Shown here: in pieces, positions 2,699-57,563 of the stretch | Position numbering within the stretch: position 1 is the first letter of the stretch | How the letters are laid out: each line of letters begins with the position of its first letter | Origin: a virus | Length of the DNA stretch: 64,000 bases | Virus record (IMG/VR): IMGVR_UViG_3300035698_011365 | Location: 1-64,000 of that record | Direction: 5' to 3' (one strand) | Made by a program: the position numbers and the translations under genes | Notes under the pieces: generated by a model | Database searches by the model: none | What the model saw: the letters and a program-made list of their open reading frames with translations, nothing else | What the model was told of the DNA's origin: nothing

Positions 2699-2809
2699 AT
2701 TTCTTTCCTTTTTTTGAAATTAGCTAGTAGTCTCTCCTACAAGTCTCGCACACATTTTGTTCGAGGACATTCTTATAAAACAAGAGTCTCTCTTTGTCAC
2801 GGGGTACGT

Positions 2810-24135: not shown

Positions 24136-24837
24136 ATGCTACTTTCAGAAATCTTTGACCAGCTAACGTATGGTGAATTAAAGCAACTAGATATGGGTGG
24201 TGATGATGGTGGAGCTATAGATCAGAAAGATTATCCTCAAGTTGTTGCGCATGTTAACCTAGGTTTAACAGAACTCTATAAACGATTTCCTATTAAAATG
24301 AGAACAGTAACAATTGAACAAGATGCTTCTATTGGGACTTACTTTTTAGATTCTACTTTTTCTGCGGTGGATGGAACAGCAAGCACCCTGTATCTAATAG
24401 ATACTGTTGCTGATCGGTTTATAGATAATGTTTTAAAAGTAGAGAAAATCCGAGATGTAGACGGAGATCTACTGGATTTTAATGATGCTAACAGTATTAC
24501 CTCCATTAATACTTATGATTATAATGCGATATCTATTCCTAACCCAGTTACCGGTACATTCATTAGTGTAGAGTACCGTGCAGATCATGATCCAATTTCA
24601 CCAATTGAATTAGATCCAACAACTGTAGAAGTGAAGCTACCAAGAAGTCTACTTGCAAGCTTACTTCAGTATGTAGGCTATAGGGCGTATGCTACGACTC
24701 CACCTATTGATGGAGTTGACAGATCAGGGCAATATCTAGCTAAATTTGAGGCTGGACTCACAAAACTTGTTAACCTTGATCTTATCAACGATGTTGAGAA
24801 AGAGAATCAGAAGCTGTGGAATAATGGATGGCCGTAA
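24136..24837 (+). CDS. Tail/head-tail connector protein (N4 gp67-like)
   Basis: A 233-residue protein. MLLSEIFDQLTYGELKQLDM and NLGLTELYKRFPIKMRTVTI are typical of the virion protein found next to the terminase in N4-like phages (N4 gp67) and resemble podovirus tube adaptors. Mixed alpha/beta; the last 10 bp overlap the fibre gene. Likely joins the portal to the tail. Confidence 0.75.
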   Translation: MLLSEIFDQLTYGELKQLDMGGDDGGAIDQKDYPQVVAHVNLGLTELYKRFPIKMRTVTIEQDASIGTYFLDSTFSAVDGTASTLYLIDTVADRFIDNVLKVEKIRDVDGDLLDFNDANSITSINTYDYNAISIPNPVTGTFISVEYRADHDPISPIELDPTTVEVKLPRSLLASLLQYVGYRAYATTPPIDGVDRSGQYLAKFEAGLTKLVNLDLINDVEKENQKLWNNGWP

Positions 24838-27800
24838 CCCCTAAAACCTCCAACGTCGGAGGTGTTCAAATACATGTTGATGCTGCCTATAATAATATTA
24901 AACAGGTAGCAGATAACCTAGAAGCATTACTAGCCTTAGAAAACTACTTCAGTAATATGAATGGAATTTATCTAGGGGAGTTTGCTTCTGCTCCTTCATT
25001 GAGAGGAGATACAACTGCTCTGCAGAATGGTGATCATTATTTTAATACTGATAACACCATTATGTACACTTATTTAGATTCTGCTTGGATTTATAGTCCG
25101 GTGTTTTACACACAAGCTGCTTTAAACACTGCAGTAGGAGCAGGCCCCTTTCATACTTGGGTTGCTTATGCAGATGATAACATCGGTACCGGTATATCAG
25201 AACAACCGGGAAGTAGAGAATATATAGGTTTTGCTTTAGGTAATTCAGTTGCTGCAGTTAGTATTTTAGATCCAGATATATTTAATTGGTCTAAGATCAC
25301 CGGAGCTGACGGCATTGATGGTGTCGACGGCGCTGACGGTGCGCAAGGAATCCAAGGCGACGCAGGAGCCGCTGGGTTAGATGGAGCAGACGGAAGTGAC
25401 GGAGCTAAAGGTGATCAGGGTGATCAAGGAATAAAAGGTGATACTGGAGACACGGGGGCTACCGGAGCCGCAGGCGGAACCGGTGCAACCGGTTCGCCGG
25501 GTATAACAGGAGATACGGGCCCTAAAGGGGATATCGGCTTAACTGGTTCTACTGGTTTAACAGGCCCTGCCGGAACTGATGGAGCTGATGGAGCAACAGG
25601 GCCTGCGGGTTCTGCAGGTGCTAAAGGTGATAAAGGTGATACTGGGTCTCAAGGAATCACTGGTGCAACAGGTCTCACAGGAGATAACGGAATTCCAGGG
25701 ACTGCAGGCTTAAGCGGAATAGCTGGCCCTGCAGGAGCAACAGGTTCTAAGGGAGACAAAGGTGACACAGGGTTAACTGGGTCTACTGGTGCAGCAGGGA
25801 TCGATGGAATAGACGGATCTGATGGCACAAATGGAACTAATGGAAGTACAGGAGCTACAGGAGCTACAGGTACTACTGGCCCAACTGGGGCTAAAGGAGA
25901 TACCGGAAGTACTGGTGCTACTGGTGCTGGAGGTTCAACTGGAGCTCAAGGCCCTCAAGGAATTCAGGGATTAACTGGAGATACCGGAGCCCAAGGAATT
26001 AAGGGAGATAAAGGAGACACTGGTGATGCAGGAGCAGATGGTTCTGATGGAAATGTAGTTATACAAACTCCTGTAGAACCTTCAAGTATATCTGTATATC
26101 CTTTAAGCGAATCTATAAGAATTACATGGTCTGTACCTAATTACTCAGGGCACTGGTACACTAAAATATACAGAACCACATGGGATGGCATTACTCCCCC
26201 GACTTTTGATGAAGGAGACTTCCTGCAGTCAGTACAGGGAGATTACTTTGACTACGCCGTAACTCCGGATACTGATTATTATTATTGGCTTAAACATGTT
26301 AATTTAGATGGAACAGAGTCTACTGTAAGTGGGGGCAACGGAACCAAAACACTAATAGGTGTCTCAGATGATATTGATTGGGTCACTCTATCTAATTTAG
26401 ATGCAGTTTTAGAAGCTAGATTAAATCAAATAGATACAACATTGATTGATGGTGAAGCAGGCTTATTAGGGGCTATGGCAGCTATAAGAGGTGAATATGA
26501 TATTCTTGACGCTGCTTTTGCTGATGTTGAGGATGATTTGATAGATGCATCAACAGGGTTATATAAACAGTTCAGTGATCTAAGTGAAGCTTATACCATT
26601 ACCGCAGGAGTTGTCGGAGACAACAGTGCCGGACTTGTTTTTGATGTAGGAGCTCAAGGAGCTCACTTCTTCTTTAAAACCAATGTGAATGGGCATATAG
26701 CAGGTTATGGGTTATCTAATACACTTAACGAAGAGGGTAATGCTACAGCTCAATTTGCTGTTTTAGCTGATGAGTTTATAGTAGCGCACCCAGATAATAC
26801 AGAGACTGTTCCATTTTATATATCTGGAGGAGTAACATATCTTACTGAAGCCTTTGTTAAAGAGTTAACTGCTAATAAAATAATTGCAGGTACTGTAGCC
26901 GCAAGCCAAATATATATTGGATCAGATCTCTTTGAACTTAAGGGAGATGTGAACTCTGAATCTAAAGGTGCGTTAATTATTCAGAATGTGGCCAAGACTA
27001 CTGAGTTAGTTAGATTGGGTTATTCTGCAGATGGGGCCAGTGTAGGTCTCTTCTTAAAAGATCATGCCGGTACAGATATTTTCACCGCAGGTACGACACT
27101 CGCAGGAGATATGTTAAACTCCGGAACGATATGGGCTGATGTATCAGGCACAACTGATGCTCCAGATGATAACGCTACAAGAGATGTTTACCAAGGTAAC
27201 TATGATGCTGGAACAGCATATATTGTAGGCGACACTGTTTTAGAGTCTGGTAACATATATAGAAATATTTTAGCCTCGACAGGTAATACACCGCCTAATG
27301 GGACATACTGGACGCTATTTATTACAGGTGGATTATTTAAAGATATTAAGTTTAAAGCAAGCGCCGCTGTACCAAGCACTCCTACAGGTGCTTCTCCGGT
27401 TGACTGGACAGATCATGTACCAGCAACAGGCGGAACAGTGTTCCAGTCATTCGCCCTTAAAGATCAAAATGGTTCTGTTATCGGGGCTTGGTCAACACCT
27501 ACAGTATATATTGGTAGATTTAAGGGTGCGTACAGTGGTGGTACGGATTATTTCTTAGGAGACAGTGTAACGCAAGGAGGCTCGACATATATTTGTTTAG
27601 ATGAAACTACTGATGGTATCTCTGGACAAGCCCCACCAACGGGAGCAGGAAGTAATACATATTGGGATCCTTTAGCTATTAAAGGCGATCAAGGTGATGA
27701 GCCAACGACATTTAATGAAACATTAACATGGTCTTCAGGAGCAAACCTAAATCTGAGAGATCAAGCAGATATTCTTGGTTATGATGGTGTCGGTGATGCA

Positions 27801-28451
27801 ACATTTGCAGTAACAGTATCTGCAGACATTATATCAAGTACCACTGCTAGTGCTGCTATTGATACAGGAAGCTGGCCGGGAGTTACTCTTGATCTTGATA
27901 TTATCGTAAATTCCGGTGTCGTTGTAAGAGGACGAGGGGGTAACGGGGGTGCGGGTGGTAATGGAGATATTACAGGTAATGGTGGTGGAGCTGGTGGTAT
28001 CGGTATCAAACTTAACGAAGATTGTAATATTTCTCTTGGTTCTACAGCTCGTGTCTCCGGTGGAGCAGGAGGAGGCGGCGGCGGAGGTGGTTATGAAGAT
28101 CCTGAAGGTGCTGGTGTTGGTTATGGTGGCGGAGGAGGAGGAGGTTGGCCTCTAGGAGCTGCAGGTAATGGCCCGGGAAGTGCTACTAACGGTACAGCAG
28201 GTACTGCAACAGAAGGCGGTGCTAATGGTACTGGCTTTAATTTCGGTGGTAATGGTGGTGCAGGTGGTGACAGAATATCCACATACAGCCCTGAAGCAGG
28301 AACAAATGGTGTAACAGGAGCAGCAGGTGATCCGAACACCAATAGCGGCGGGCCGGGAGGCGCTGAAGGTGACGCTATTGATAAAAATGGGTATTCGTGT
28401 ACTATATCCGGTGCAGGCTCATCAAATACATATGATGTAGTTTCAACTTAA
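24828..28451 (+). CDS. Mosaic collagen-like tail fibre with lambda J-like and polyglycine adhesin domains
   Basis: A 1,207-residue fibre. Order: N-terminal attachment domain (1-160); collagen Gly-X-Y tract (about 160-410, GAKGDQGDQGIKGDTGDTGA); fibronectin-III-like domain (about 418-510, SISVYPLSESIRITWSV); a region matching the central domain of lambda host-specificity protein J (DUF1983; about 520-725, with HIAGYGLSNTLNEEG then ADEFIVAHPDN); two chitin-binding-like modules (about 771-831, 895-960: YDAGTAYIVGDTVLESGNIY); and a glycine-rich C-terminus (about 1030-1200, GGNGGAGG and GGGGGGG runs) like the polyglycine-II adhesin tips of T-even gp38. Receptor-binding fibre with a siphophage-derived middle. 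Confidence 0.75.
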   Translation: MAVTPKTSNVGGVQIHVDAAYNNIKQVADNLEALLALENYFSNMNGIYLGEFASAPSLRGDTTALQNGDHYFNTDNTIMYTYLDSAWIYSPVFYTQAALNTAVGAGPFHTWVAYADDNIGTGISEQPGSREYIGFALGNSVAAVSILDPDIFNWSKITGADGIDGVDGADGAQGIQGDAGAAGLDGADGSDGAKGDQGDQGIKGDTGDTGATGAAGGTGATGSPGITGDTGPKGDIGLTGSTGLTGPAGTDGADGATGPAGSAGAKGDKGDTGSQGITGATGLTGDNGIPGTAGLSGIAGPAGATGSKGDKGDTGLTGSTGAAGIDGIDGSDGTNGTNGSTGATGATGTTGPTGAKGDTGSTGATGAGGSTGAQGPQGIQGLTGDTGAQGIKGDKGDTGDAGADGSDGNVVIQTPVEPSSISVYPLSESIRITWSVPNYSGHWYTKIYRTTWDGITPPTFDEGDFLQSVQGDYFDYAVTPDTDYYYWLKHVNLDGTESTVSGGNGTKTLIGVSDDIDWVTLSNLDAVLEARLNQIDTTLIDGEAGLLGAMAAIRGEYDILDAAFADVEDDLIDASTGLYKQFSDLSEAYTITAGVVGDNSAGLVFDVGAQGAHFFFKTNVNGHIAGYGLSNTLNEEGNATAQFAVLADEFIVAHPDNTETVPFYISGGVTYLTEAFVKELTANKIIAGTVAASQIYIGSDLFELKGDVNSESKGALIIQNVAKTTELVRLGYSADGASVGLFLKDHAGTDIFTAGTTLAGDMLNSGTIWADVSGTTDAPDDNATRDVYQGNYDAGTAYIVGDTVLESGNIYRNILASTGNTPPNGTYWTLFITGGLFKDIKFKASAAVPSTPTGASPVDWTDHVPATGGTVFQSFALKDQNGSVIGAWSTPTVYIGRFKGAYSGGTDYFLGDSVTQGGSTYICLDETTDGISGQAPPTGAGSNTYWDPLAIKGDQGDEPTTFNETLTWSSGANLNLRDQADILGYDGVGDATFAVTVSADIISSTTASAAIDTGSWPGVTLDLDIIVNSGVVVRGRGGNGGAGGNGDITGNGGGAGGIGIKLNEDCNISLGSTARVSGGAGGGGGGGGYEDPEGAGVGYGGGGGGGWPLGAAGNGPGSATNGTAGTATEGGANGTGFNFGGNGGAGGDRISTYSPEAGTNGVTGAAGDPNTNSGGPGGAEGDAIDKNGYSCTISGAGSSNTYDVVST

Positions 28452-43404: not shown

Positions 43405-46386
43405 ATGGCTTATCAACCACTAACATATAGAACAGTAGGGCTCTCAAACTATGGCGGTATCGCTGATGGTATGAGTGATGCCATTAAAGGCTTTAAATCA
43501 AGTGCTACGACTATTACTGATCAACTTGGGGAGATGGAAGCAAACCAAGAGGCAGATACTCTAGCAGCCTTCCAGAACTCCCTACGTGGACGTAGTGCTG
43601 AAGAAACTGAAGCACTTATTAATGATCCAAATCAATTAGGTCAATTCAATCTTGGTTTAGCTGATCAAACAGCTGTACAGGGTGTACTAGGCAGTGCAGT
43701 TGCACAAGCACGTACACAAGATACAGCTAACTTTAATTATGCACGTACACAAGAAGACCAAAGAGATGCTCCTCTATTAGATGTGCTACGTAATTCAGTA
43801 CTTGAAGGAAGCACTGATCAAGATGAAGCAGCCTATAAAAGTTATTTAGATAGTGGTGGTACTGTTCGAGGTGCTTCTGAGATATTTGCAGGTATCAATA
43901 AAGAAAAACAAGGGAATATATTAGCTGATCATGAGAGCAGCTTTTTACAGAACAGATATGATACTGCACTGGCTGAAGGCGGTAACGCTGATGCTGCTGT
44001 TGGTAAAGCCGCTGAAAAAGATTACATAGATAAGTATGTTGAATTAAATAACGGAAGTAGAGCAGGTGCTCAAGATTCTTGGGATAGGGCTCAAGCCAAA
44101 GAAAAAGCTAAATATAAAGTTGGTGAAATTGTTCAAGGCGAGTGGGATAAACAACTCAAAACATACGCTATTGAGTATGAAGCTGAAACCGGTACACAGA
44201 AATCACAATTAGATGCTGCAAATAAATTACTAGCTCCTGATAGTGTATTATCTGATGATGAAATAGCAAAACAATTAACAGACGTGCTTGTTGCTGCAGA
44301 CGGTAAATCAGAGGACTGGGGTCTATCAATAAAAAGTTTAATCTCAGATTCTTGGACTAATAAATATGTAGAAATTGGCGGGAAAAGGATATCTATTGAA
44401 GGTGTTAGACCTGCTGACTTTATGTATGCAGCTCAAGGTGCTGCGGATAAAGGAGATGAAGCTAAATGGTATACATTATTTGTATCTGTTGATGGCGAAG
44501 TGGATGAAGAGAAATTTAAAGCTGCTTTGGTTCAAAGAGCACGAGATAGGCAAGCAAGCCCTAACGCTGTTGATAAAAAAATTGAGAATGCTGCACTACT
44601 TGAAAAGTATAACCAGAGAGTTATTGATAAAGAGGCCCATTTTAATGCCAAAAGGCTGCAACTAGAGAATGATTATAAAGCTGATACCAGAAACGGTGTC
44701 CGTGCTTTTGGTGCTACTACTCCTCAAGGGGTAGCAAATAATCTTAGAAACGGAGCTAATGGTGTTGGTGGAGATATTTCTACAGGCACTCCTAGTGGTG
44801 TATTAGAGACCCCACCAGCAGCTGTAACAGTTAATACGCCTGAAGCGACTGGAACCGTTATTGAGACTGCTCCTGCAGTAACTCCTGCAGTAACTCCTGA
44901 AATAACCGCAGTAAGAGAGCGATTGTCTGCTCTTGATCAAGCTGCTTTAGATAATCCGTACACCCCGCCTACAGAAATACCTGCAGAAATAGGTACAGGG
45001 ATAGAACAGTCAGTTAAGGATGTATCCGATCTTGCAAACACTTTAGATGAGAATTCAAGTCCAGAAGAGGTAGCAGCAGTTCGGGATCAAGGTAACAAAT
45101 TAATATCTGACTATGTTGGAGTGGTTGGTACTGATGCTATTAAAAATAGTCTGAGAAAAGACGGAAATGAAACCCTTACACGAGCAGATCTTTTGAGAAT
45201 AGCTACGGATATATTATCAGTAGAAGACAGCCCAATAAAAGATTTACGGGGAGGAAGGGCATTAGTAGAGGATAAACCAACTGTTGACTATGTTGTAAGT
45301 GAACTTTCAGAAATGGTTGGTGAAGTTGTATCTACTCAAAGAGCAGAAGCTAAATCAGCATCTGATGCTGAGAACAAAAGAAAAGCTCTTGTAGAGCAGG
45401 TCAAAAATAGTGACAGAACTGCAGGTAGAACTGAAAGAGCAGGCATTCTTTCAGAAGGCAATACTCGTATTGAACGAGAGAATACCCTTAACAGTCTCAG
45501 AGGAAGTAGAAGAAACCCGAATGGTTTAACCATAGAGCAGGAAGTTCAAAATGAGCGGAGAGCAGCTCAAGAAGCCCTTTTGACTAATGCTCAAAATCAA
45601 GGGGGAGAGCAAAGCTTTTTCTCAGGAATTTTTCCAACTTCTCGGGCTGATCAAGACGCAGCTACTTTATCTAATGCAGGATTAGGCCAATATAATCCTG
45701 AAGGCACCGCCATACCCACAGAAACAAAGAGTGCTGGTGTGCAGAGAGCAGAGGATCTTGCTAAAATGAGACAGTTGGGGGAAATTCCTCAACAGCCTGC
45801 TGATGACCTAATAAATGGGTCTTCTGGCGATACAGGCCCAATCGATAACTTAAGTGTAAAAGCCACTACTTCACGAAGAGCAAAGGAAATCACAGGAGAA
45901 GAAGGTAATTTACTGGATGGTGCTAAACCTGATCCGGGGAATGGAGCAAGTAATATTAGTGCAGGTCTTCCCTATAAGACTAAACGTATTAAAGATCATA
46001 TAGGTAAATTATTCAATAAAATAGATGCAGCATCAATTAATATAACAGGCAAGCTTACTGCTGCACAAAGCACTAAACTTACAGAGTCTGTAGTTAAACA
46101 GACAGAAGGTGAGCTTAAAGGCTATCTGAACAACTGGGGAAAGTTATCAACCTTGGTTCAAGATGTTCTTGTAGACAAGACTTATAATAAAGGTCTTACA
46201 AAATTAGATGAAAAATCTAAGAAATTTGTTGATGCTATTCGTTCAAATAATTTACCTTTAGCTCTATCAGAGATGTCTGATAAGTCTCCAAGAGATAAAA
46301 GAAATATTAAAAAAATGAAGCAAGCTATATTAGAGTCTGGTGTTGATACTGCACTGGAATCCGGTGTAAATAATATAACTGATTAA
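43405..46386 (+). CDS. Large internal virion protein (N4 gp51-like position)
   Basis: A 993-residue helical protein. Repeated AQARTQDTANFNYARTQEDQ and YKSYLDSGG segments (residues 100-160) resemble internal core proteins of podoviruses, and the centre carries proline-rich linkers (PAVTPAVTPEITAVRERLSA). No enzyme motif is seen. Its place directly before the virion polymerase fits a companion of the ejected polymerase. Confidence 0.68.
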   Translation: MAYQPLTYRTVGLSNYGGIADGMSDAIKGFKSSATTITDQLGEMEANQEADTLAAFQNSLRGRSAEETEALINDPNQLGQFNLGLADQTAVQGVLGSAVAQARTQDTANFNYARTQEDQRDAPLLDVLRNSVLEGSTDQDEAAYKSYLDSGGTVRGASEIFAGINKEKQGNILADHESSFLQNRYDTALAEGGNADAAVGKAAEKDYIDKYVELNNGSRAGAQDSWDRAQAKEKAKYKVGEIVQGEWDKQLKTYAIEYEAETGTQKSQLDAANKLLAPDSVLSDDEIAKQLTDVLVAADGKSEDWGLSIKSLISDSWTNKYVEIGGKRISIEGVRPADFMYAAQGAADKGDEAKWYTLFVSVDGEVDEEKFKAALVQRARDRQASPNAVDKKIENAALLEKYNQRVIDKEAHFNAKRLQLENDYKADTRNGVRAFGATTPQGVANNLRNGANGVGGDISTGTPSGVLETPPAAVTVNTPEATGTVIETAPAVTPAVTPEITAVRERLSALDQAALDNPYTPPTEIPAEIGTGIEQSVKDVSDLANTLDENSSPEEVAAVRDQGNKLISDYVGVVGTDAIKNSLRKDGNETLTRADLLRIATDILSVEDSPIKDLRGGRALVEDKPTVDYVVSELSEMVGEVVSTQRAEAKSASDAENKRKALVEQVKNSDRTAGRTERAGILSEGNTRIERENTLNSLRGSRRNPNGLTIEQEVQNERRAAQEALLTNAQNQGGEQSFFSGIFPTSRADQDAATLSNAGLGQYNPEGTAIPTETKSAGVQRAEDLAKMRQLGEIPQQPADDLINGSSGDTGPIDNLSVKATTSRRAKEITGEEGNLLDGAKPDPGNGASNISAGLPYKTKRIKDHIGKLFNKIDAASINITGKLTAAQSTKLTESVVKQTEGELKGYLNNWGKLSTLVQDVLVDKTYNKGLTKLDEKSKKFVDAIRSNNLPLALSEMSDKSPRDKRNIKKMKQAILESGVDTALESGVNNITD

Positions 46387-46403: not shown

Positions 46404-49400
46404 ATGAGTGATACTGCTTCTGCACAAATTAACAATATATTAGCCAGTAGAGGAGAAACAGCGACTCCTACTACAGATACTCCTCAAGCACCTGATGCCT
46501 TAGAGAGAGCTATAGCTCGTAGACCTGAAGCACCTATGTCTCCTTTGGATCTCCGTATAGCCGCAAGGGATGCTGAAGCACGTAATGTAACCACTCCTGC
46601 CCTCAATGAGAGAGTAGCTGCCAGAGATGCACAAGACAGCGGTGTATCATCTTTAAATGAGCGTATAGCCGCTAGAGAAGCCCCTACTGTTACTGAAACC
46701 AAAGCAGCTACTATTACAGCTAAGGCACAAGATAAAGTAAATAATTTTGGCGGTAAAACCCCTTCTCCAGAAGAGGCACAACCACAAAGAAGTATGGAAC
46801 AAGCCGTACAAGAAAAGGCTCAAAAACTAGGGTTAGAGAAACCTGTTCCTATTAATATGTCTGATGTGGGTGATGAATCTATATTCAGAGAAATAGCTGA
46901 TATCCCTATCAAAACCGGTCAAGGTGCGGTTATGGGTGTTCGCATGATTGCTGATGCTATGGGTGCAGATAATGAATTATCTCAATCATTACGAGGTGTT
47001 GAAGACTACTTAGGTGCTCTAGTAAGTGCACAATCTAAAGAAGATTCTGCAGAAGTCTCTCGTATAATGGAAGAAGCTAAAAATAAAGGTGTGTGGGAGC
47101 AACTGAAAGCAGGTGCAGAAGCATTTGCTGTGGCTCCTATAGATTTATTAAGTAATGCTTTTGGTACCTCTGTTCCCATAATTCTTGCAGGTATGGCTAC
47201 TGTAGCCTCTGGAGGTGGTACTGTTGCAGTAGGCGCCTCAGGTGTGGCTCTTGGTGGATTAACCGGTGTAGGTGTTACAAAGGGATCTATATATGATGCA
47301 ACTAAAGAAGTTCTATTAGAACAGGGAAAGGTTACTCCTGAGCAGGCTGAGAAGATGGCTGTAGAAGCTCAAGCATACGATGGTGAGAATCTGGATATGA
47401 TTCTTACTGGGGGTGCATTAGGAATATTAGCATCTAGATCGGGTATTGAGCCCGGACTAATAACAGGTATGGGTAAAAAGCTGGCTCAGAGACTAGGTAA
47501 AGAAGTATCAAGAGACATTGCTGAAGGCACAATTAAAGAAGGTGGTAAGAGCGTAGCTAAAAGAAGTGCTTTAAAAAATATAACTGAAGAAACTGTTACT
47601 GAAGCAGCTCAGGGATCTCATGAACAACTTTCAGCTAACGTAGCTAAAAATAGAATTGGAATTGATACTCCATTAATGGAAGGTGTAGTCAGTTCAGGTG
47701 TTCTTGAAGGATTAGGTGGTTTAGGTGTCAGTGGAGTAGCTGATGCTAAGAATATAGTTGGAAAGACAGCAGCTAAAAGTGTACTAAATCTAGATAAGAA
47801 GCTTAAAGAAAGAGATGCTAAAAAAGCAGAAGCAGTAGCCAATGGTGAAGAACCAGCCCCTGCCGGGACTATAAAACAAGAGCTTAAAAACCTTAAGAAT
47901 GATGTTGTTGAAAAGTTCAGCAAAGCTAAACAAACAGTTACATCACAAAAGAAAGCAGTAGATGCACTAAAAGAGCCAGCTAAAGTAGCTGAGGCCCTTC
48001 AACCAGATAATGAGAAGTTCACTAAGGAAGAGAAAGTAATTCTTGCTACTGATAAGTCACGCAGGCCTGCAGCAGATGCAAGCCCTGAAGAGATACAAAA
48101 GTATCAAGGGGAAGTACAGAATGCTCTAGTCGGTTGGTACACTGAGGTACACACAGAATTTAATGAACTTGTAGCCAAGAGCCCTAAAGAAGAGCGCTCA
48201 CCTGCGGATCAAAAAAGAGTTAATGAGCTTTTTGAAATCAAAAGGGAAATAGGTGCCAAGATTAAAAACATTATTGAAGTTGCCAGAGATGACTCTAAAA
48301 CTCTAAAAGATTTTACAAATGCTGTAGACGATGTGAAGAAAAACTCATCACCTCCGGACGCTATTGTTAGAATTCTTGGTTCAACCGGCGGTAAGAACAT
48401 TCCTAATGCAGATCTCAAAAGCTTACAAGAAAGTGATATTAAGCTTCCTGAAAGAGAGAAGGCTATTCTTGATACTCAAATTGAGATCAATAACAAAGTA
48501 GAGGCCCTAGAAAAGAGAGCAACCAGTACTAAAAGTTCTGACTATGTTCATATGGAAGTGGTCAATGGTACTGAAGATAATCTTGGTTTCAAAAACTATC
48601 TCGATAACATTACCATAAGTGTAGAGAGCCAAGAAACAACTACAGTAAAGAAATCAGTCGGAAACTTTAATAAGTTCCTCAAAGGACATAAAGATAAAGC
48701 TGTTGATTTTGCTAATACGATCAAACTCGATAATGCTAATGAAAAAAGTAATACCGAAGAAAGTAAAGCAGCTTTGGATAAATCCGTAGAGCTTTTGAAA
48801 ACCAAATATGATTGGGATCATGAGTTTGCGGGTGCAACAATGAATGTGCTCAAGTTAATCAAGGATGAGGTGGCCATAGGAGAGGCGTACAGCACACAAA
48901 TACAAAATGTGGTGAATACTGGCGCCAAATCAACTGCAGTCCCTACATCAACGCCTAATACTGTTATAGACGATACTGTAATCTCACAGGAAGAGTTTGA
49001 ACAAAGTAATCAAGAAGCACCATTACCAACACCCGATGATTATGCAGGAACATCCGGGCAGGATGCCCCCCTTGGGGAGAGTGCCGGAGTGACCAGCCCA
49101 ACATCGGAAGTTCCTCTTAATCAATCCCCTCCGGATAATGCGGGAACATCTGGGTTAGAGACAGGGTCTTTGAGCGAGGCTTCTTTAGCCGAGTCGAACA
49201 AGACTGGGTCTATAACCGAAGATGAGACAAGCCTATCGGAGGGTCTAAAGACAGAATTAAAAGAGTCGTTGGCTGCTTTGAAAGAAAACAAAGAGAATGG
49301 TGGTACAATTACACCTCAACAAGAACAACTTCTTAAATTAAGTGAAAAGAGAATAAACGGCTTAACAGATACATCTTTAAAACAAAGACTAGTAGAAGCC

Positions 49401-52400
49401 AATACTGCTACTGCTACTGCTACTGCTACTGATAATGGCGCCACTACCACTAAAACCAGACCACTTAAGAAAAGAGCTGAAGGACAAAACAATAGACTTA
49501 GAGAATTCTATAAGGATATTGAATATGTAAAGAAGGCTCGTAAAGCTATTGCTAAGAAACAAGGTAGGCGTAAAGTAACTCAATATACTCCTATTGAAGC
49601 CGTAACAAATGCTATTATTAATAGCGGTAAAAAGATTGTTATGTCTAAAAAAGGTGCATATGACAAAATAAATAATAAGCCTACTAACAAAGAAATTAGA
49701 GGGCTGTTTGTAAGTGAAAAAGCAGCTTCTAAGATGAATCCTGACAGCCTTATAGATGCTGCTGACAATTTAGAACCAGATATCTTTAGGGATGCTGGTA
49801 TAGAACCTGAGATGGATGGTAATTACGTAAAAGCTTCGTGGTTAGCCAAAGTATTTAACGAAGGTACTTTTGATGTTAGAGAAGGCTCAGAACTTGCAGC
49901 AGATAGAGTAGTTGAAGAAGAGATAAAAAGAATAGAAGAGTTTGTTACTGTAACTGTAGGTACAGATGTAGATGCCCCTTCTGTTGATATCATTGAAGCC
50001 TTTAGAAATTATGATAATAATCTAGAAGGTGTCGTACAAGAAGAAGCTTCACAAGAAGAGGACGATGCTGGAGTGCAAGAGGATTCCCTTCGGGAATCCG
50101 ATGGAACGAATAAGCCGTCCGATACTACTCTGCAGGATAGGTTAATGGAAGATACAGGAGCACTCTTTAAGTCTGAAGAGGGTAAGCCTGTACATGTGAA
50201 AGATAACCATCTCAAGAAGCTGTTTAAAGTCAAAGAGCTTAAAAATAGTCTTAATAATGTACTACATAATATAGTGAGCTGGGCAGAGAACTATACTGAA
50301 GTGAACTCTAAACTTAATGACGAAGAGAAGGCTATGGTGAAAAACTTCATAGCTTTTGATAAAGGTATTAATAGAATTCTCACTCAAGGTACATTCACTA
50401 GAGAAGACGGAGTAACTACACAAACTCATAGTCCACTTCTTGCGGCTAATGAGGGTAGAGCATTAGCTTTCAAAAACGATTCGCTTATTAACTTCTTCTA
50501 CAATAAAGAATACGACAAAGAGAATCCGGATACTGACGTACCTCTGCTAGATCCAAATATGGTAACAGCAATGTCCTCTGTTCTTTATGAGTGGTTAGCA
50601 GTACACGGTGCAGGCACCCTGAGCATGGACTCAACCACTGTTGCCAGAACCATAATGGGTTCCGGTAATTCTAAAATTACACCTACAAAAGAGATGTTTG
50701 ATCTCTTAGGGGATAAAGGCACAAACCAGTCTCTATTAGCTGAACAACTAGGTACGAAGCTTATTTCATCACTTGGGTTAAGTGTTTCAGAAAACAATCC
50801 AAACAACTATGTGAGCAAGGCTGCAGTAGATCTGGGTAATGTAATATTGGCTGCAGGGTTCCAATCAGGAATGATTGAGAGAACTGTGGTGTTCACTGAA
50901 GATGTAAACAAACTTAAGGAAGAATACAGGCTTGCTGTAAAAGAAGCAGACGGCACTAAAAAGAAAGTCGATAATGAAGACTTTGATGAAGGTGACGAAA
51001 ATAGTGATTTTACTGATTTCACGGATCTTAGTGAAAGTGCGGCCGAAGGACAAGTATTCTATGTTCGAGTTAAACCTCATACTGTAGAAACCAAGCTTGG
51101 AAGTAAAATACTCCCTAGTCCCTATATACAAGACATAAGAAAGAAATATAAAGGAGGCCAACGAGCATTCCATAATCTATTTGGATCAGTAAGCCCGGAC
51201 AGAGCCCCTTCTTTCGAGAAGCCTAAAGAGAATACTGTTTCTCCTACAATTAAGAAGACAGACTTAAATGTAGCTGAAGAAATTCAAGAGATTCTTCATA
51301 AGAAGGCTCAAGAACCACATCAAATGAGTGACTCTTTTGGTGTTATAAAAGATTTTTCTGATGCTGAACTGTTTGAGTTGTTTGGTGGTATCAATGATGT
51401 AGATAAGAAACAAATAAAACTACAAGCCAAATATAACGCACAGAATACAGAAATTAATAAATTCATAGAAGACATGAGATTCTTCATAGATGGCGCCCCT
51501 AAAGATGACTCAGGGAACCTAACTAAAGATTTCTATTATGATTACGAAATATGGCGTAACAGCCGTATTGGTATGAAAAATAACATCATGAACTACCAGA
51601 GCAGTAAGCTTGCAAGACAGCTGGTTGCTCTTAAGTCTATGAAGGTTGATATCCCAACTGTTAATGAAGACTCCAATAATACTGACATGAGTGAAATACT
51701 TACACTATTTCATATGGCAGTGGCTCAGGGAATGGGCATAGATGAAGGTCTCTCATCAAATGAGATAATCGGTGAGCTTGAAGAACTAATGAGTCCAAAA
51801 GGCCTCTACGGAGGTATAATAGACCTATTGGTTCAGCAAGAACAGGGATATGAGTTAGAACCTAAAGACAGAGCTAGACTTATTAAGGCTACAGCCAAAG
51901 GCGGTCTTCATAAGATATCTGCTATTACGGCATGGGCTAAATACATGCAAGCAAAAGAGACCGGTTCATCTTTCTCTACTAATCTAACAAGAGAGATTGA
52001 TGGTAAAGTGAATGGTGTTGCACATGCATCTTTCCAGTCTACTTTTGATCAAGAAGGTAATCCTGTACGTACTAACTTCATGAATAAGACCGGCATATTC
52101 AGGAATAAGAAGCAGTACAAAACATCTAATGAATACTTCAATGATCCAAAGAATAAAGATGTTTATCAGGATGTGGCTACTGTTGTGGGAGCTAATGTAA
52201 CTGAGGCAGGTAATAAACTTAAAAAAGATCCTAAAAAAGCTAGAGCGTATCAAGTACATCAAGGAGCTTTAGGACTAGTAGGCTCTTTCTTTGAAGTTAT
52301 TGATGGTAAGAATACAGATACTGTTACTAAAGATGGTCGAGAATTCGCTAAAGATCCTGTGATCAAATTCATATACGGTGCTGAAATTTCCAGTATTACT

Positions 52401-55400
52401 TCTGGGGTTGTGGCTGTATCTATGAATAAACTCTATACAGATATAGAAAATACCCTAGGTGATCCAGCAAAACTAAAGATTATAAATAATAGCTTATCCA
52501 ATATACTTGGTAAGGATGCTAAACTTAATAGTGATAACTATTTAACTTATGAACTTAATAACGTGAGTATAACTGCTGAAAGAGATGTAAGAGAGGCATT
52601 AGCCAACACATATAAAGAACCATTAAGAGCTGCTCTTAATGATACCTTCTGGCAGATTAAAGCTGCTAAGAAGAAAATAGTTGAAGCACATCAATTTGCT
52701 TATGAATTGTTTGAAGGAGCTTACTATACAAAAGCCGCCAATGTACTTATAGGAAACAATGGTCAACCTCTTACAATCAAGCAAGAGGAGGATATCCTCA
52801 AGGAGCTTGCTCCATTACTTCCACGTATTGATACTGCGATATCAGACAACAGTGGGAAGAGTGGTGCCTACCTCTGGACTAAAGAGTTAACAAAAGATTA
52901 CGACAGAGTACACATGCAAAAACAGATAGCTGCTCTAGAGAATAGTGGAAGAGATCCTGCTGAAATCAAGATATTTGTTGCAGCTCTTAAAAAAGGATAT
53001 AAGAAACTTAAGTCCAACAGTACAACAAGGAATGAATTCTTTGCTAGAGGCAGTAAAGAGAAGATCCGTAACACCGGTTATGAGAGTAGACTAAATAAAG
53101 GTTCTGAAGACGGTGTAGGTAAACTAGCGGGATTTGCTCGTCACTACGAGATCTTCGAAAGCACTAATAAAGCATTTGTAAATGGTATTCATTCCCTTGA
53201 TAGTATGAACATGCTTGAGATATATGCTGAACTTGAAGCCATGGGTATTCATGATGCTATTATGGTTCCACTTAATACTGAGATTAAAGATGTTGCTTTT
53301 GCTAACCAAGCATTCTTGAAAGTAAATAATAACTACAACCTCAGAGCTGAGAGTATTAATAGGCTTGAGTCTACTATAGAGGCTTACGAGAAGCTTAGAG
53401 ATAACAAGAATAATAAGAAAATACCTTATGGTGTTGTTGTTACTCCTGCTCGTATTGCTGCTATGAAAGCTTGGATGAATGAAGGAGCTAAAGGAAGTGA
53501 TTTTGGCCCTAAAAAACAAGCTGCAGCGAGCCAAAAAACAATACAGAAAGATGTTACTAATCTTGCTAAGAATGGTTTAGTGGATCAATTCCAAGCTAAC
53601 CATACAAGTTATTCAGATAATGTTGATGGTGTAGCTCAAGGTGAGAGCATTAAGACTAAAGACTTAGATAAAGCCACTGCTAAAGATCAAGAGAAGCTTG
53701 AAAAGAAAGTAGATATGGATACTGCTATAGGAATTATAACTGAATTCCGTAGAATAGGTGGTAGCACCAAAGCAGGTATCAAAACTTCTGATCAATCAGC
53801 AGATGCTCAAATATATATGGGAATCCATAAACAAGACCTGAAGCAGGCTGTGGAAGTACTTAAATCTAGTGAAGAAGGTAAAGACTTCTTGGCTGAGGAT
53901 TTTGATAGTTTCCTTGGTTCAGGCCCTAGTGATTATGATGAGAATAACTTCAATCCAAATAAAATATGGGAAGTTAATGGTCAAGGTGCTTTAGACCTGT
54001 TTGATATGTTAGGAACTAAAGGTTTTGGTAACAAGCCTGAGAATGCAGAGCATTCAAAATATTTAAGAGATTTGCTTGTTAGTTTTGGTGTAACTGAATC
54101 AATAGATAACTTGATTATTAAGCTTGAAGAGACCGGTACAGAGAGTGCAGGCTATGCCGTAACAAGAAGTAACGGTAAGAAAGAGATTCATATGCTCTCT
54201 GCTTCCAAGGCCTCTGCTAATGGCATCCGTATGTCAGTACAGGAAACCTATGCTCATGAACTACTTCACATCTTGTCTGAGTCTGTAATTAATACAAGCA
54301 GCAAAGCCCGGGCAGAGCTCGATCGATTATTTAATGAAGTCAGGGATGATCCTACAGTAGATTATAGAGCCTTCTTGAATGATCCAAATGATTTAAGCAA
54401 TCAAGCAGAGAACGACGCTGCTAAAGCCAGATATGACTATATATTTGAGAATACTGAGACAAGACAAGAATCCATCAGAGATGACTCCACAGGTGAAATA
54501 CACACTCATGATCGTAATGACTTCCTTCATGAGTTTTTTGCACTTGGTTTATCTAATGAGAACTTTGTTAAAGCTCTTGCAGGCAGGTTCTCTACTAAAG
54601 AAACTAAACCAGATAATAAGACCCTTTATGATAAAGTGGTTCATATTCTCGTAAAGACTATGGGTTTATTTGATAAGAAGTATAATGATATCCGTAAGGA
54701 TAACATGAGTAATCAGCTTAAGTTTATAGCTAAAAGACTTCTACAAAACAAAGAAGTTTCCAAAAGCAAAGTTCAAACTTTTAATGCTATTACTCAACAG
54801 ATAAATGAGCAGGTACTTTATCCGGCTGTACGTTTTGTTATCGGAAGCATCAAAGGTGCTGCACGGAGTAAATACGTAAAGAACAACAAAAACAGAGTTG
54901 TACGTGATGTTGGTGAAATAATTGATAAAGCTCAATTCAAATATTTCTCTACATATTTTGCTTTCTTGAGTGATGTACGTAAAAGAATGGGTATCAGCGC
55001 TAATAACATCCTAAGCTCTATGTTTAGAGAGGTTGCCGGTACTACTTTTGGAATGCGTTTCTGGCATCGGATGTTGATCTTATCTAATAGAAAGATGGAT
55101 CAAAACCATAAAGCAGTGGATAATCATGTTAGAGCAGAGGCTCTGGGAGCCTATTTGGAGCTCACTGAGGCCGAAAACGTATCAATTACTAAAGGTGGTA
55201 TCAGAACAGACTTCTCCGTGCTGGATGACTCTTATACGCTTGCTGAGATAGCTGAGTTCTATAATACAAGTAACAAAGCAGCTTTGAATAGTGAAATTCA
55301 ATCTATTATGCAAAGGCTTCAGAATGCTTATGACCCTGAAGTTTATAACTTTTACTGGAAGATGTCTGAGAGCCTCGCTAATGTGATGGTTGAGGGCAGA

Positions 55401-57563
55401 GCACTGGAAGAAGATACTTTTGGTTCAGCTTACAGTATTGTTAATATGCATGGCGCCGACTATGAAAAGACTGTGACCCATGAAGATATAAATGATACTG
55501 AGAGATTGATTGATATCCTCACTACGTTGAATGCTATCAAAAAGACCTCTGACAAAACCAAGAATGATCTTCATGGAGTAATGCTTCGTGAGAATGCTCG
55601 TGGAGATGTAGAGGGTGGTATTGATTTCACTATGAAGCTCTTGAAGAAGAATAAAGAAGAGGCACTAAATAATAAGGAATTGTTTAATGGTAACAAAGCA
55701 GAGGTTCGTAAAGGCTTTTCTAAAGAGCTCTATGCTCCTAATGTAACTTTTAAGTACGGTACTGCAGAGGAAGAAGGGGAAATGTTTAAAGATGGTTTCT
55801 TACCTATATCAAACAAGAGCCATGGAGTTGCATTAGACGCTGCTCATGTAGCTGAAAAAAGAATAATGTATGTGAATACAAATTCAGAAATTACTACATT
55901 TCAAAGGGGTATAGTAGCTCTTCAACAAGAAGCAACTATTGGAACCAATGTCTTAGACTTTAATAGTCAGAGAGGTAACAACAGTGTAAATAAAGCAGCT
56001 AAAGATGTAAGAAATATCCAAGCAGCTAAGAAAGCCAATAAGAAAAAGATTTTTGATAGTGCTCCTAGCAGAGTGCTTGATACAGATGCCAATAACTTAT
56101 TGATTCCTATTAATGCTCCTGACGGTACAATTACTGGGTACCGGTATATTATGAAAGAATCTACTAAAGATGAGATTTTGAATAGAGACAACTCTTTTGA
56201 GAAGGTTCTTGGTAAAATGGAAGCCGGTATTGATGATAAAATCAATGCTCGTATGATCAACAAGAAAGTGATTAAAGGGCTCCATACTGAATATACAACC
56301 ATGTTCAGTACAGCTACTCCTAATCACTTTGTTAAGTTGGGCCCTGATTCCAAGAATCCAAGGTATAAAGAGATCTGGCAAATGATGCCTGAGCCAATGC
56401 GTAGAGAGATTAAAGCTGTCTGGGGAACTGACGGAATCTATGTGCGTGAAGAGATAGTAGAATTGGTTTTCGGAAGAAGAAAGTTCTCTATAGCTGATTA
56501 CGGCCGTGAGTCTGTTAAAGCAGGTAATAAGCCGGGTATGATCAATCATACTCTAGGTATGCTGCTCAATAGACCTAATGTTCGTAGGGTAGAGGCTTTC
56601 GTACAGGATCTTGTTAAAATAATAAAAGACATTATTGTTATTAAATCTGTAGCTGTTCTAATAGATAACGTGATTAGTAACTATGTTATTCTTCTTATGA
56701 GGGGAATGTCTATACAGGATATCTTTAAATACAAGAAAGAGGCCCTTATTGATGCTAAAAAGTATAAGGAGCTTCTTACTAAAGAGAGTACGTTGGTTCA
56801 AAAGATAGCCCTTAAAGAACAAAGTAGAACCTCTAAAGGTGCTCCTACTAAAACTGTTATTGATGCTCAGATTAAAAAGATCGAAGGCGACTTAACTATT
56901 GTAAGAGAATCAATAGCAATCAATGCTGTAAGGGATTTGAGTGAAGCAGGAGTGCATCAAACGATTGTGGAAGATGTGTCTCTTGAAGATAATGACAACA
57001 GGCTTCGTGGAAATATTGAAGACTTAATAACTCCTGCTAAGAAATTTGTACCTGAAATAGTACAAGGAGGACTTAAAAACGTATTTCTTACACGAGATAC
57101 GCAAATGTATAAGGCTTTAAGAGATGTCACTCAAATGAGTGATTTTGTTGGAAGATACGCTTTACATCAACATAATACTAAAGTTATGAAGATGAAGCGA
57201 GAAGACTCAATTGAGGATATATTTGCTGCCTTCATTCATTATGATTTGCCTACCCATAAAGGCATTCAATACTTAAATGATGTGGGTATATGGATGTTTA
57301 CTAAATTCTTCTTTAGAATTCAAAAAGAGATATTTAGATCAATATTTGGAGCCCCTAATAGAGATGGCTCAAGAAGAGCAGGTAATCCTACTGCCTCTGC
57401 AGCTGTACTGGCTTCTCAGATATTTGTTGGTGATTTTGCTGATATATATGAAAGTGGTGTTGTTACTGGCTCAGGAAGTCATACATTTGATGTTAATATT
57501 CTTCATACAATATATAAGAATCTTTTATCAGGTGCGTTTACTTCGGCGGCTGTTTCGTATTAG
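46404..57563 (+). CDS. Virion RNA polymerase (N4 gp50-like) with embedded zinc metallopeptidase motif
   Basis: A 3,719-residue protein packaged in the head and injected to transcribe early genes. Catalytic core of T7/N4 type: template Arg R1721 in WRNSRIG, motif A D1866 in EIDGKVNGVAH, motif B R1979/K1983/Y1991 in REFAKDPVIKFIYGA, motif C D2284 in GIHDAIMV. Spacings (145, 117, 8, 293) track those of N4 vRNAP (135, 111, 8, 273). N-terminus: imperfect RIAARDA repeats (residues 40-95), and a Gly/Ala-rich membrane-like stretch (about 245-305). At 2618-2622 is HELLH in AHELLHIL, with HEFFALGLSN about 90 residues later: a gluzincin-type site. The C-terminal 900 residues are helical, of the type shared by ejected proteins. 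Confidence 0.9.
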   Translation: MSDTASAQINNILASRGETATPTTDTPQAPDALERAIARRPEAPMSPLDLRIAARDAEARNVTTPALNERVAARDAQDSGVSSLNERIAAREAPTVTETKAATITAKAQDKVNNFGGKTPSPEEAQPQRSMEQAVQEKAQKLGLEKPVPINMSDVGDESIFREIADIPIKTGQGAVMGVRMIADAMGADNELSQSLRGVEDYLGALVSAQSKEDSAEVSRIMEEAKNKGVWEQLKAGAEAFAVAPIDLLSNAFGTSVPIILAGMATVASGGGTVAVGASGVALGGLTGVGVTKGSIYDATKEVLLEQGKVTPEQAEKMAVEAQAYDGENLDMILTGGALGILASRSGIEPGLITGMGKKLAQRLGKEVSRDIAEGTIKEGGKSVAKRSALKNITEETVTEAAQGSHEQLSANVAKNRIGIDTPLMEGVVSSGVLEGLGGLGVSGVADAKNIVGKTAAKSVLNLDKKLKERDAKKAEAVANGEEPAPAGTIKQELKNLKNDVVEKFSKAKQTVTSQKKAVDALKEPAKVAEALQPDNEKFTKEEKVILATDKSRRPAADASPEEIQKYQGEVQNALVGWYTEVHTEFNELVAKSPKEERSPADQKRVNELFEIKREIGAKIKNIIEVARDDSKTLKDFTNAVDDVKKNSSPPDAIVRILGSTGGKNIPNADLKSLQESDIKLPEREKAILDTQIEINNKVEALEKRATSTKSSDYVHMEVVNGTEDNLGFKNYLDNITISVESQETTTVKKSVGNFNKFLKGHKDKAVDFANTIKLDNANEKSNTEESKAALDKSVELLKTKYDWDHEFAGATMNVLKLIKDEVAIGEAYSTQIQNVVNTGAKSTAVPTSTPNTVIDDTVISQEEFEQSNQEAPLPTPDDYAGTSGQDAPLGESAGVTSPTSEVPLNQSPPDNAGTSGLETGSLSEASLAESNKTGSITEDETSLSEGLKTELKESLAALKENKENGGTITPQQEQLLKLSEKRINGLTDTSLKQRLVEANTATATATATDNGATTTKTRPLKKRAEGQNNRLREFYKDIEYVKKARKAIAKKQGRRKVTQYTPIEAVTNAIINSGKKIVMSKKGAYDKINNKPTNKEIRGLFVSEKAASKMNPDSLIDAADNLEPDIFRDAGIEPEMDGNYVKASWLAKVFNEGTFDVREGSELAADRVVEEEIKRIEEFVTVTVGTDVDAPSVDIIEAFRNYDNNLEGVVQEEASQEEDDAGVQEDSLRESDGTNKPSDTTLQDRLMEDTGALFKSEEGKPVHVKDNHLKKLFKVKELKNSLNNVLHNIVSWAENYTEVNSKLNDEEKAMVKNFIAFDKGINRILTQGTFTREDGVTTQTHSPLLAANEGRALAFKNDSLINFFYNKEYDKENPDTDVPLLDPNMVTAMSSVLYEWLAVHGAGTLSMDSTTVARTIMGSGNSKITPTKEMFDLLGDKGTNQSLLAEQLGTKLISSLGLSVSENNPNNYVSKAAVDLGNVILAAGFQSGMIERTVVFTEDVNKLKEEYRLAVKEADGTKKKVDNEDFDEGDENSDFTDFTDLSESAAEGQVFYVRVKPHTVETKLGSKILPSPYIQDIRKKYKGGQRAFHNLFGSVSPDRAPSFEKPKENTVSPTIKKTDLNVAEEIQEILHKKAQEPHQMSDSFGVIKDFSDAELFELFGGINDVDKKQIKLQAKYNAQNTEINKFIEDMRFFIDGAPKDDSGNLTKDFYYDYEIWRNSRIGMKNNIMNYQSSKLARQLVALKSMKVDIPTVNEDSNNTDMSEILTLFHMAVAQGMGIDEGLSSNEIIGELEELMSPKGLYGGIIDLLVQQEQGYELEPKDRARLIKATAKGGLHKISAITAWAKYMQAKETGSSFSTNLTREIDGKVNGVAHASFQSTFDQEGNPVRTNFMNKTGIFRNKKQYKTSNEYFNDPKNKDVYQDVATVVGANVTEAGNKLKKDPKKARAYQVHQGALGLVGSFFEVIDGKNTDTVTKDGREFAKDPVIKFIYGAEISSITSGVVAVSMNKLYTDIENTLGDPAKLKIINNSLSNILGKDAKLNSDNYLTYELNNVSITAERDVREALANTYKEPLRAALNDTFWQIKAAKKKIVEAHQFAYELFEGAYYTKAANVLIGNNGQPLTIKQEEDILKELAPLLPRIDTAISDNSGKSGAYLWTKELTKDYDRVHMQKQIAALENSGRDPAEIKIFVAALKKGYKKLKSNSTTRNEFFARGSKEKIRNTGYESRLNKGSEDGVGKLAGFARHYEIFESTNKAFVNGIHSLDSMNMLEIYAELEAMGIHDAIMVPLNTEIKDVAFANQAFLKVNNNYNLRAESINRLESTIEAYEKLRDNKNNKKIPYGVVVTPARIAAMKAWMNEGAKGSDFGPKKQAAASQKTIQKDVTNLAKNGLVDQFQANHTSYSDNVDGVAQGESIKTKDLDKATAKDQEKLEKKVDMDTAIGIITEFRRIGGSTKAGIKTSDQSADAQIYMGIHKQDLKQAVEVLKSSEEGKDFLAEDFDSFLGSGPSDYDENNFNPNKIWEVNGQGALDLFDMLGTKGFGNKPENAEHSKYLRDLLVSFGVTESIDNLIIKLEETGTESAGYAVTRSNGKKEIHMLSASKASANGIRMSVQETYAHELLHILSESVINTSSKARAELDRLFNEVRDDPTVDYRAFLNDPNDLSNQAENDAAKARYDYIFENTETRQESIRDDSTGEIHTHDRNDFLHEFFALGLSNENFVKALAGRFSTKETKPDNKTLYDKVVHILVKTMGLFDKKYNDIRKDNMSNQLKFIAKRLLQNKEVSKSKVQTFNAITQQINEQVLYPAVRFVIGSIKGAARSKYVKNNKNRVVRDVGEIIDKAQFKYFSTYFAFLSDVRKRMGISANNILSSMFREVAGTTFGMRFWHRMLILSNRKMDQNHKAVDNHVRAEALGAYLELTEAENVSITKGGIRTDFSVLDDSYTLAEIAEFYNTSNKAALNSEIQSIMQRLQNAYDPEVYNFYWKMSESLANVMVEGRALEEDTFGSAYSIVNMHGADYEKTVTHEDINDTERLIDILTTLNAIKKTSDKTKNDLHGVMLRENARGDVEGGIDFTMKLLKKNKEEALNNKELFNGNKAEVRKGFSKELYAPNVTFKYGTAEEEGEMFKDGFLPISNKSHGVALDAAHVAEKRIMYVNTNSEITTFQRGIVALQQEATIGTNVLDFNSQRGNNSVNKAAKDVRNIQAAKKANKKKIFDSAPSRVLDTDANNLLIPINAPDGTITGYRYIMKESTKDEILNRDNSFEKVLGKMEAGIDDKINARMINKKVIKGLHTEYTTMFSTATPNHFVKLGPDSKNPRYKEIWQMMPEPMRREIKAVWGTDGIYVREEIVELVFGRRKFSIADYGRESVKAGNKPGMINHTLGMLLNRPNVRRVEAFVQDLVKIIKDIIVIKSVAVLIDNVISNYVILLMRGMSIQDIFKYKKEALIDAKKYKELLTKESTLVQKIALKEQSRTSKGAPTKTVIDAQIKKIEGDLTIVRESIAINAVRDLSEAGVHQTIVEDVSLEDNDNRLRGNIEDLITPAKKFVPEIVQGGLKNVFLTRDTQMYKALRDVTQMSDFVGRYALHQHNTKVMKMKREDSIEDIFAAFIHYDLPTHKGIQYLNDVGIWMFTKFFFRIQKEIFRSIFGAPNRDGSRRAGNPTASAAVLASQIFVGDFADIYESGVVTGSGSHTFDVNILHTIYKNLLSGAFTSAAVSY

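What the first reader, a model, noticed from the sequence alone, without database searches (positions are those of the whole stretch)
46404..57563. HELLH zinc-metallopeptidase site inside the virion RNA polymerase
Downstream of the polymerase motifs, residues 2618-2622 read HELLH within ETYAHELLHIL, and about 90 residues later HEFFALGLSN offers a glutamate third ligand, the pattern of gluzincins. A protease delivered together with the polymerase could cut itself loose, cut other ejected proteins, or attack a host target at the moment of entry. I do not know of a described peptidase function in N4 vRNAP.
Basis: partly seen in the sequence, partly recalled or inferred. Interest (0 to 1): 0.78.

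Follow-up and report, generated by a model that had tools for sequence, protein, structure and literature searches.

The report
Protease domain beside virion RNA polymerase
This marine N4-like phage carries, right behind its injected RNA polymerase, a conserved zinc-protease domain of a kind already predicted in N4; the new point is that the domain occupies a different slot from N4's, and N4 keeps only a dead copy in that slot.

Summary
HELLH (aa 2618-2622) and the later glutamate (E2710) are real and look like a zinc site: all four residues are invariant in 71 of 71 distinct live domain copies from schitovirus vRNAPs, and an AlphaFold model shows a zincin core. The idea is not new: Iyer et al. 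2017 (PMC5512222) predicted a zincin peptidase in N4 vRNAP, and Bellis et al. 2025 (PMC12633501) noted its HExxH. I found no demonstrated activity. What I did not find in print: schitovirus vRNAPs have two zincin slots. The window's live domain is not the counterpart of N4's HELVH domain. By sequence and structure it matches N4 residues about 2376-2650, the start of N4's "C2", where the metal ligands are gone and the framework is kept. Across 77 vRNAPs (70 distinct at C2), at least one slot is live in 77 of 77; slot 2 is live in 40 of 40 without slot 1 but in 2 of 37 with it. The live zincin follows the polymerase closely in 75 of 77. Best reading: a peptidase tied to the polymerase-CTD junction, acting after ejection. 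Substrate and activity are inferred.

The parts
46404..57563 (+). virion RNA polymerase (N4 gp50 homologue), 3719 aa
   Evidence: ORF, phrog_2206 E=0, PDB N4 vRNAP phmmer E 2e-30
51564..53255 (+). polymerase catalytic residues R1721, D1866, R1979, K1983, Y1991 and motif C D2284
   Evidence: aligned to N4 residues whose numbers were recalled and whose letters were checked; motif C Asp in 77 of 77 vRNAPs, motif A Asp in 75 of the 75 aligned rows that have a residue there, of 78 rows
53901..54803 (+). zincin domain, slot 2, aa 2500-2800 (approximate ends)
   Evidence: AF2 model of aa 2480-2830, mean pLDDT 73.5, pTM 0.70; structural match to N4 vRNAP 2376-2592, Z 10.0
54255..54269 (+). HELLH, aa 2618-2622: two metal-ligand His and the catalytic Glu
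   Evidence: lies in helix 133-152 of the model
54528..54557 (+). HEFFALGLSN, aa 2709-2718; third ligand E2710 (54531-54533)
   Evidence: E invariant in 71 of 71 distinct live copies; lies in helix 228-238 of the model
56100..57338 (+). conserved far C-terminal stretch, aa 3233-3645, used as an independent bait and ruler

Best explanation
HELLH plus E2710 is the metal site of a live zincin (lethal-factor/PPEP-like fold) built into the vRNAP directly behind the polymerase. Schitovirus vRNAPs have two possible zincin slots between polymerase and C-terminal domain. Slot 2 is the fixed one and is the live one in the window phage. Slot 1 is a cassette inserted between polymerase and slot 2, as in N4. 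Where slot 1 is present, slot 2 has usually decayed to a metal-less pseudo-zincin that keeps its framework. Some live zincin is always kept, nearly always next to the polymerase. Most likely it is a peptidase that acts after ejection, in or next to the polymerase-CTD junction, cutting vRNAP itself or a partner in the ejected complex, which could free the polymerase from its inhibitory CTD. Shown here by comparison: domain, four-residue site, two slots, retention, position. Inferred: zinc, peptidase activity, substrate and timing.
For: Four site residues invariant in 35 of 35 slot-1 and 36 of 36 slot-2 distinct live copies. The model has three strands, then HELLH in a helix, then E2710 in a second helix, the layout Iyer et al. 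give for these MPTases. Best structural match N4 2376-2592 (Z 10.0, 183 residues, 3.8 A), then the anthrax LF catalytic domain 584-776 (Z 6.3). Bimodal spacing from HExxH to the C-terminal stretch: 571-642 or 761-861 aa, none between. The slot-2 profile finds a dead copy in 32 of 35 slot-1-only vRNAPs. Dead copies lose ligands (H2618 2/30, H2622 3/29, E2710 0/33) but keep framework (F2711 32/33, A2673 26/27, E2614 27/30). Motif C to the first live HExxH is 222-388 aa in 75 of 77. In print: the N4 CTD inhibits the polymerase.
Against: No activity, zinc or substrate is shown. Pfam gives no match at its cut-off and Foldseek none at E<=0.001. LF Z 6.3 is in the range the tool calls inconclusive. 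N4 vRNAP is packaged unprocessed according to Iyer et al., and the recombinant protein showed no degradation, so self-cutting would need a trigger. The 28 named or window vRNAPs were chosen through this domain, so their HExxH counts are partly selected. Two live slots occur in 2 of 77, and 3 Rhodovirinae lack a recognisable slot-2 copy.
Confidence: 0.72

Rival explanations
1. The zincin is an injected effector that cuts a host protein in trans (for example a defence or transcription factor); its place behind the polymerase is incidental.
For: Iyer et al. raise this option. LF and PPEP, the nearest structural matches outside vRNAPs, cut other proteins (recalled function; matches). A complete slot-1 cassette is present in Vibrio phage phi 1 and absent from the near-identical VCO139, which is how swappable effectors behave.
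Against: A live copy is kept in 77 of 77 vRNAPs across very different hosts, nearly always closely behind the polymerase; a host-specific effector would be expected to be lost or moved more often.
Confidence: 0.28
2. The zincin works during virion assembly, for example trimming a scaffold or ejection protein in the head, and is spent by the time of ejection.
For: The region containing the MPTase is required for N4 vRNAP encapsidation (Iyer et al., passages); phage P1 DdrB, with an MPTase, is cut before packaging (same passages).
Against: N4 vRNAP itself is packaged unprocessed (same passages). No zincin-dependent head maturation in N4 turned up in the parts of papers read here.
Confidence: 0.12
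3. The site binds metal only to stabilise the fold or lock the CTD, without catalysis.
For: Recombinant N4 vRNAP shows no degradation.
Against: The catalytic Glu is as invariant as the ligands in live copies (71 of 71), which pure metal binding does not require. Dead slot-2 copies keep their framework residues without the ligands, so the site is not needed for folding.
Confidence: 0.1
4. Chance HExxH in a long helical protein.
For: A bare HExxH occurs in 103 of 2000 shuffles.
Against: Conservation of four residues in contigs picked by a distant motif, the zincin layout in the model, and the match to N4 and LF.
Confidence: 0.01

Closest known systems
Zincin-like MPTase domain of N4 vRNAP, described among polyvalent proteins (Iyer et al. 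2017, PMC5512222)
   Same: HExxH helix, second helix with Glu, in the C-terminal part of a giant virion RNA polymerase
   Different: N4's live domain (HELVH 2228-2232, E2310) occupies slot 1; the window's live domain occupies slot 2 and corresponds to N4's dead copy
N4 vRNAP CTD cryo-EM structure (Bellis et al. 2025, PMC12633501; PDB 9pnr, 9pnt)
   Same: The window domain superposes on residues 2376-2592, Z 10.0
   Different: The authors end the HExxH domain C1 at 2375 and report no structural relatives for C2; here C2 begins with a metal-less zincin copy
Anthrax lethal factor catalytic domain and Pro-Pro endopeptidases (PPEP)
   Same: Fold-level match: LF Z 6.3 for the window model; for a slot-1 model LF Z 7.5, Certhrax 7.7, PPEP-2 6.1
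   Different: No LF or PPEP chain in the PDB sequence searches; part of a phage polymerase; substrate unknown

Membership tests
Schitovirus (N4-like) virion RNA polymerase | giant protein matching the vRNAP family, with polymerase catalytic residues | tested here: met
   phrog_2206 E=0; R1721, D1866, R1979, K1983, Y1991, D2284 present and aligned
Schitovirus (N4-like) virion RNA polymerase | packaged in the virion and ejected into the host | not testable with these tools
   inferred from homology; gene lies after virion genes (portal, head and other virion families)
Zincin-like MPTase of polyvalent proteins | HExxH in a helix that follows a beta sheet | tested here: met
   strands 91-98, 103-108, 114-121, then helix 133-152 holding HELLH at 139-143
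Zincin-like MPTase of polyvalent proteins | glutamate ligand in the next conserved helix | tested here: met
   E2710 (model residue 231) in helix 228-238; invariant in 71 of 71 distinct live copies
Zincin-like MPTase of polyvalent proteins | bound zinc and peptidase activity | not testable with these tools
   no coordinates or assay available
LF/PPEP-type peptidases (MEROPS M34-like; family name recalled) | same fold around the site | tested here: inconclusive
   LF catalytic domain Z 6.3, 140 residues, 4.1 A; PPEP not listed for the window model but listed for the slot-1 model; Foldseek E>0.001
LF/PPEP-type peptidases (MEROPS M34-like; family name recalled) | significant sequence similarity | tested here: inconclusive
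   no LF or PPEP chain in PDB sequence searches with the protein or the slot-2 profile
Orthologue of N4's HELVH domain | best match to N4 2124-2375 and the same spacing to the C-terminal stretch | tested here: not met
   best match is N4 2440-2650, E 2.4e-12 to 2.5e-11 by chain; the HELVH site scores -1.3 bits; spacing 615 versus 803 aa; structure 2376-2592

The most novel reading that the evidence does not exclude
Schitovirus vRNAPs obey a two-slot rule: normally exactly one zincin, the one abutting the polymerase, is kept alive. A cassette zincin can take over slot 1, after which the old slot-2 enzyme decays into a structural pseudo-zincin that forms the start of N4's 'new-fold' C2 domain. 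The live zincin is a junction protease that cuts at or near the polymerase-CTD linker after ejection and so relieves CTD autoinhibition, making proteolysis the switch that starts early transcription.
Probability: 0.22. Interest if true: 0.85.

Novelty: new variant of a known kind. Interest (0 to 1): 0.52.

Why it matters
The role of the N4 vRNAP CTD in early transcription is described as unknown. Showing that its C2 part begins with a dead protease, that a live protease was never missing from the vRNAPs examined, and that the live copy sits closely behind the polymerase turns a 'zincin motif' into a testable claim about how an injected polymerase is switched on or uncoupled. It also warns against aligning HExxH motifs between schitoviruses: the motifs of the window phage and N4 belong to paralogous domains. 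If the peptidase proves active, it would be a virion-delivered protease in a widespread phage family with a laboratory model (N4 in E. coli K-12).

Tried and rejected
Tried, with little result: whole-length MAFFT of 28 vRNAPs timed out and was replaced by domain alignments. Pfam finds no family for the window domain at its cut-off. A scan of viral contigs with the window domain alone found only an identical fragment of the window's own phage. Foldseek alone finds no match at E<=0.001; the ranking by VIA-align carries the structural argument.

Considered and rejected: (a) that the window's HELLH is the orthologue of N4's HELVH (first impression; overturned). (b) That H2550, invariant in live slot-2 copies, is an active-site residue: it is kept in 23 of 25 aligned dead-copy rows, so it is framework. 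(c) That a slot-1 remnant hides in slot-2-only vRNAPs: the slot-1 profile gives nothing below E 0.04 in 40 of 40, and their distance from motif C to the C-terminal stretch is about 300 aa shorter at the median. (d) Several independent decays of slot 2: the C-terminal-domain tree separates slot-1 vRNAPs into several places, but the domain tree puts all dead copies on one side of a weakly supported branch (77), so the number of decays is open.

Rows dropped: of 60 contig loci, 1 was the window's own sequence (L030) and 10 were cut short; 49 kept, 46 distinct. The 77 vRNAPs contain duplicates of isolates; 70 are distinct over the C-terminal stretch. The tree of domains used 30 of the dead copies. 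One search counts profile-aligned rows (38 dead-copy rows from 35 proteins searched), so one protein can give two partial rows.

Selection: the 28 named or window vRNAPs are the window, N4 by accession, and 26 public phages chosen by hand for spread out of 148 and 220 matching records from tblastn with the window or N4 zincin region; only the 49 contigs are independent of the domain.

Full report
What was claimed.

The ORF is 3719 aa, matches PHROG 2206 'virion RNA polymerase' and N4 vRNAP chains in the PDB, and sits downstream of virion genes including portal and major head protein, with a DNA primase on the other strand beyond it. The window is part of a 73,673-base virus record. HELLH is at 2618-2622 and E2710 is 88 residues after H2622; a bare HExxH would appear in 103 of 2000 shuffles, the stricter zinc-protease pattern in 2 of 2000. 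The polymerase itself looks intact: R1721, D1866, R1979, K1983 and Y1991 are present and D2284 is the motif C Asp; these align with N4 residues whose numbers I recalled and whose letters one search confirmed.

It is already in print. Iyer et al. 2017 (PMC5512222; [quoted passage not shown] A 2021 review repeats it (PMC8472413, passages). The N4 cryo-EM preprint (PMC12633501; outline, passages and Discussion) notes a conserved HExxH in its C1 domain (2124-2375), reports no structural homology for C2 (2376-3500), and shows that the CTD inhibits transcription. No peptidase activity is reported in what I read.

Conservation. In 28 vRNAPs (window, N4 and 26 named schitoviruses) all have an HExxH in the C-terminal part, and H, E, H and the later E are invariant in 29 of 29 copies. 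Because nearly all of these proteins were found through the domain, I then fetched vRNAP contigs by a motif near the C-terminus: 49 of 59 were long enough, and 49 of 49 have an HExxH in frame. Over all distinct live copies the four residues are invariant in 35 of 35 and 36 of 36. That matches the polymerase's own catalytic residues (motif C Asp 77 of 77; motif A Asp in 75 of the 75 aligned rows with a residue there).

Two slots. The distance from HExxH to the conserved C-terminal stretch falls into two groups, 571-642 aa (window 615) and 761-861 aa (N4 803), with nothing between. I call these slot 2 and slot 1. Of 77 vRNAPs, 40 have only slot 2 live, 35 only slot 1 live, 2 both (PG11 and Vibrio phage phi 1) and none neither. 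A slot-2 profile finds a copy without HExxH downstream of the live slot 1 in 32 of 35 slot-1-only proteins at E<1e-6, N4 at 7.6e-15; the 3 misses are Rhodovirinae. A slot-1 profile finds nothing below E 0.04 upstream of slot 2 in 40 of 40 slot-2-only proteins. Slot-1 and slot-2 profiles are related to each other (hhalign 98.5%, E 1.9e-15), but the dead copies match slot 2 far better (E 1.4e-37) than slot 1 (3e-7) (the dead set was gathered with the slot-2 profile, so this leans towards slot 2). A domain tree separates slot 1 from slot 2 plus dead copies with support 99.

So the window's domain is the counterpart of N4's dead copy. A profile of live slot-2 domains, in which N4 itself has no row, finds N4 residues 2440-2650 (E 2.4e-12 for the best N4 chain) and gives the HELVH site -1.3 bits. 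Independently, the AF2 model of window 2480-2830 (mean pLDDT 73.5, pTM 0.70) superposes best on N4 2376-2592 (9pnr, Z 10.0, 3.8 A over 183 residues) and not on N4 C1. A model of a tandem from contig L051 (mean pLDDT 69.9, pTM 0.44) runs colinear with N4 2124-2592 (Z 14.0, but rmsd 20.5, so the two domains are differently placed).

How the dead copies died. Aligned to live slot-2 copies, they keep the framework (F2711 32/33, A2713 31/33, A2673 26/27, E2614 27/30, H2550 23/25) and lose the ligands (H2618 2/30, H2622 3/29, E2710 0/33); the catalytic-Glu position is still E in 20/30. L070 and L063 look intermediate. The L051 model shows no strands in its dead copy.

A cassette in action. Vibrio phage phi 1 and VCO139 are 96% identical over the aligned part, yet phi 1 carries a stretch of about 218 residues absent from VCO139 and from pVco-5, placed between polymerase and slot 2 and holding a complete zincin (HELIH and a later Glu). 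A gain in phi 1 is the simplest reading.

Position. From the motif C Asp to the first live HExxH is 222-388 aa in 75 of 77; the two others, 681 and 685, are L012 and L056. Whichever slot is live, the live zincin is the first recognised domain after the polymerase.

Fold and family. After N4, the best structural matches are the anthrax lethal factor catalytic domain (584-776, Z 6.3) and its N-terminal domain (57-263, Z 5.8); for slot 1 they are Certhrax 7.7, LF 7.5 and PPEP-2 6.1. The tool warns that Z under 8 may be a common arrangement, and Foldseek itself gives nothing at E<=0.001. I recall that LF's N-terminal domain is itself a dead copy of its catalytic domain, a parallel I did not test.

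Mechanism. In the vRNAPs examined the enzyme site is never lost, it can change slots, and it stays behind the polymerase. This fits a role bound to the polymerase-CTD junction better than a free host-directed effector, but does not prove it. N4 vRNAP is packaged uncut (Iyer et al.) and the recombinant protein showed no degradation, so self-cutting, if any, should follow ejection. A slot-2 phage, phi50-12, shows a vRNAP band in virions, size not given in the text (PMC9525291, passages). I therefore favour a post-ejection peptidase acting on vRNAP or a partner, with a host target as the main rival.

Novelty. The zincin in vRNAP is known. The slot-2 live form, the dead zincin at the start of N4 C2, and the always-one-live pattern I did not find in the papers returned by the searches, of which I read parts of eight. 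Iyer's 'one or more MPTase domains' may cover tandem live copies; the supplementary files were not open to me.

Noticed in passing
L025 aa 1182, L026 aa 1178, L029 aa 1291 (vRNAP numbering): Three Rhodovirinae vRNAPs carry an additional HExxH upstream of the polymerase; in Roseovarius Plymouth podovirus 1 the region matches Pfam Peptidase_M90 above its cut-off (E 4.9e-07), in DSS3phi2 no Pfam match.
   Followed up: partly
L045 (Vibrio phage phi 1) against L009 (VCO139): A complete zincin cassette of about 218 aa is present in one and absent from the other of two near-identical vRNAPs.
   Followed up: partly
L012 (Vibrio phage 1.169, vRNAP 4093 aa) and L056: About 400 extra residues lie between polymerase motif C and the zincin.
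   Followed up: no
window 43405-46386 (+): 993-aa ORF directly upstream of vRNAP, in the place of an N4 ejection-protein gene, with no PHROG or Pfam match.
   Followed up: no
window 24828-28451 (+): 1207-aa tail-fibre-like protein with several collagen-like and tail-fibre PHROG matches.
   Followed up: no
L027 (Pantoea phage G19) and several Vibrio phage records: The G19 vRNAP is annotated simply as 'metallopeptidase', and several Vibrio phage vRNAPs as 'ribonuclease E' or 'coil containing protein', so names in records hide the polymerase.
   Followed up: no
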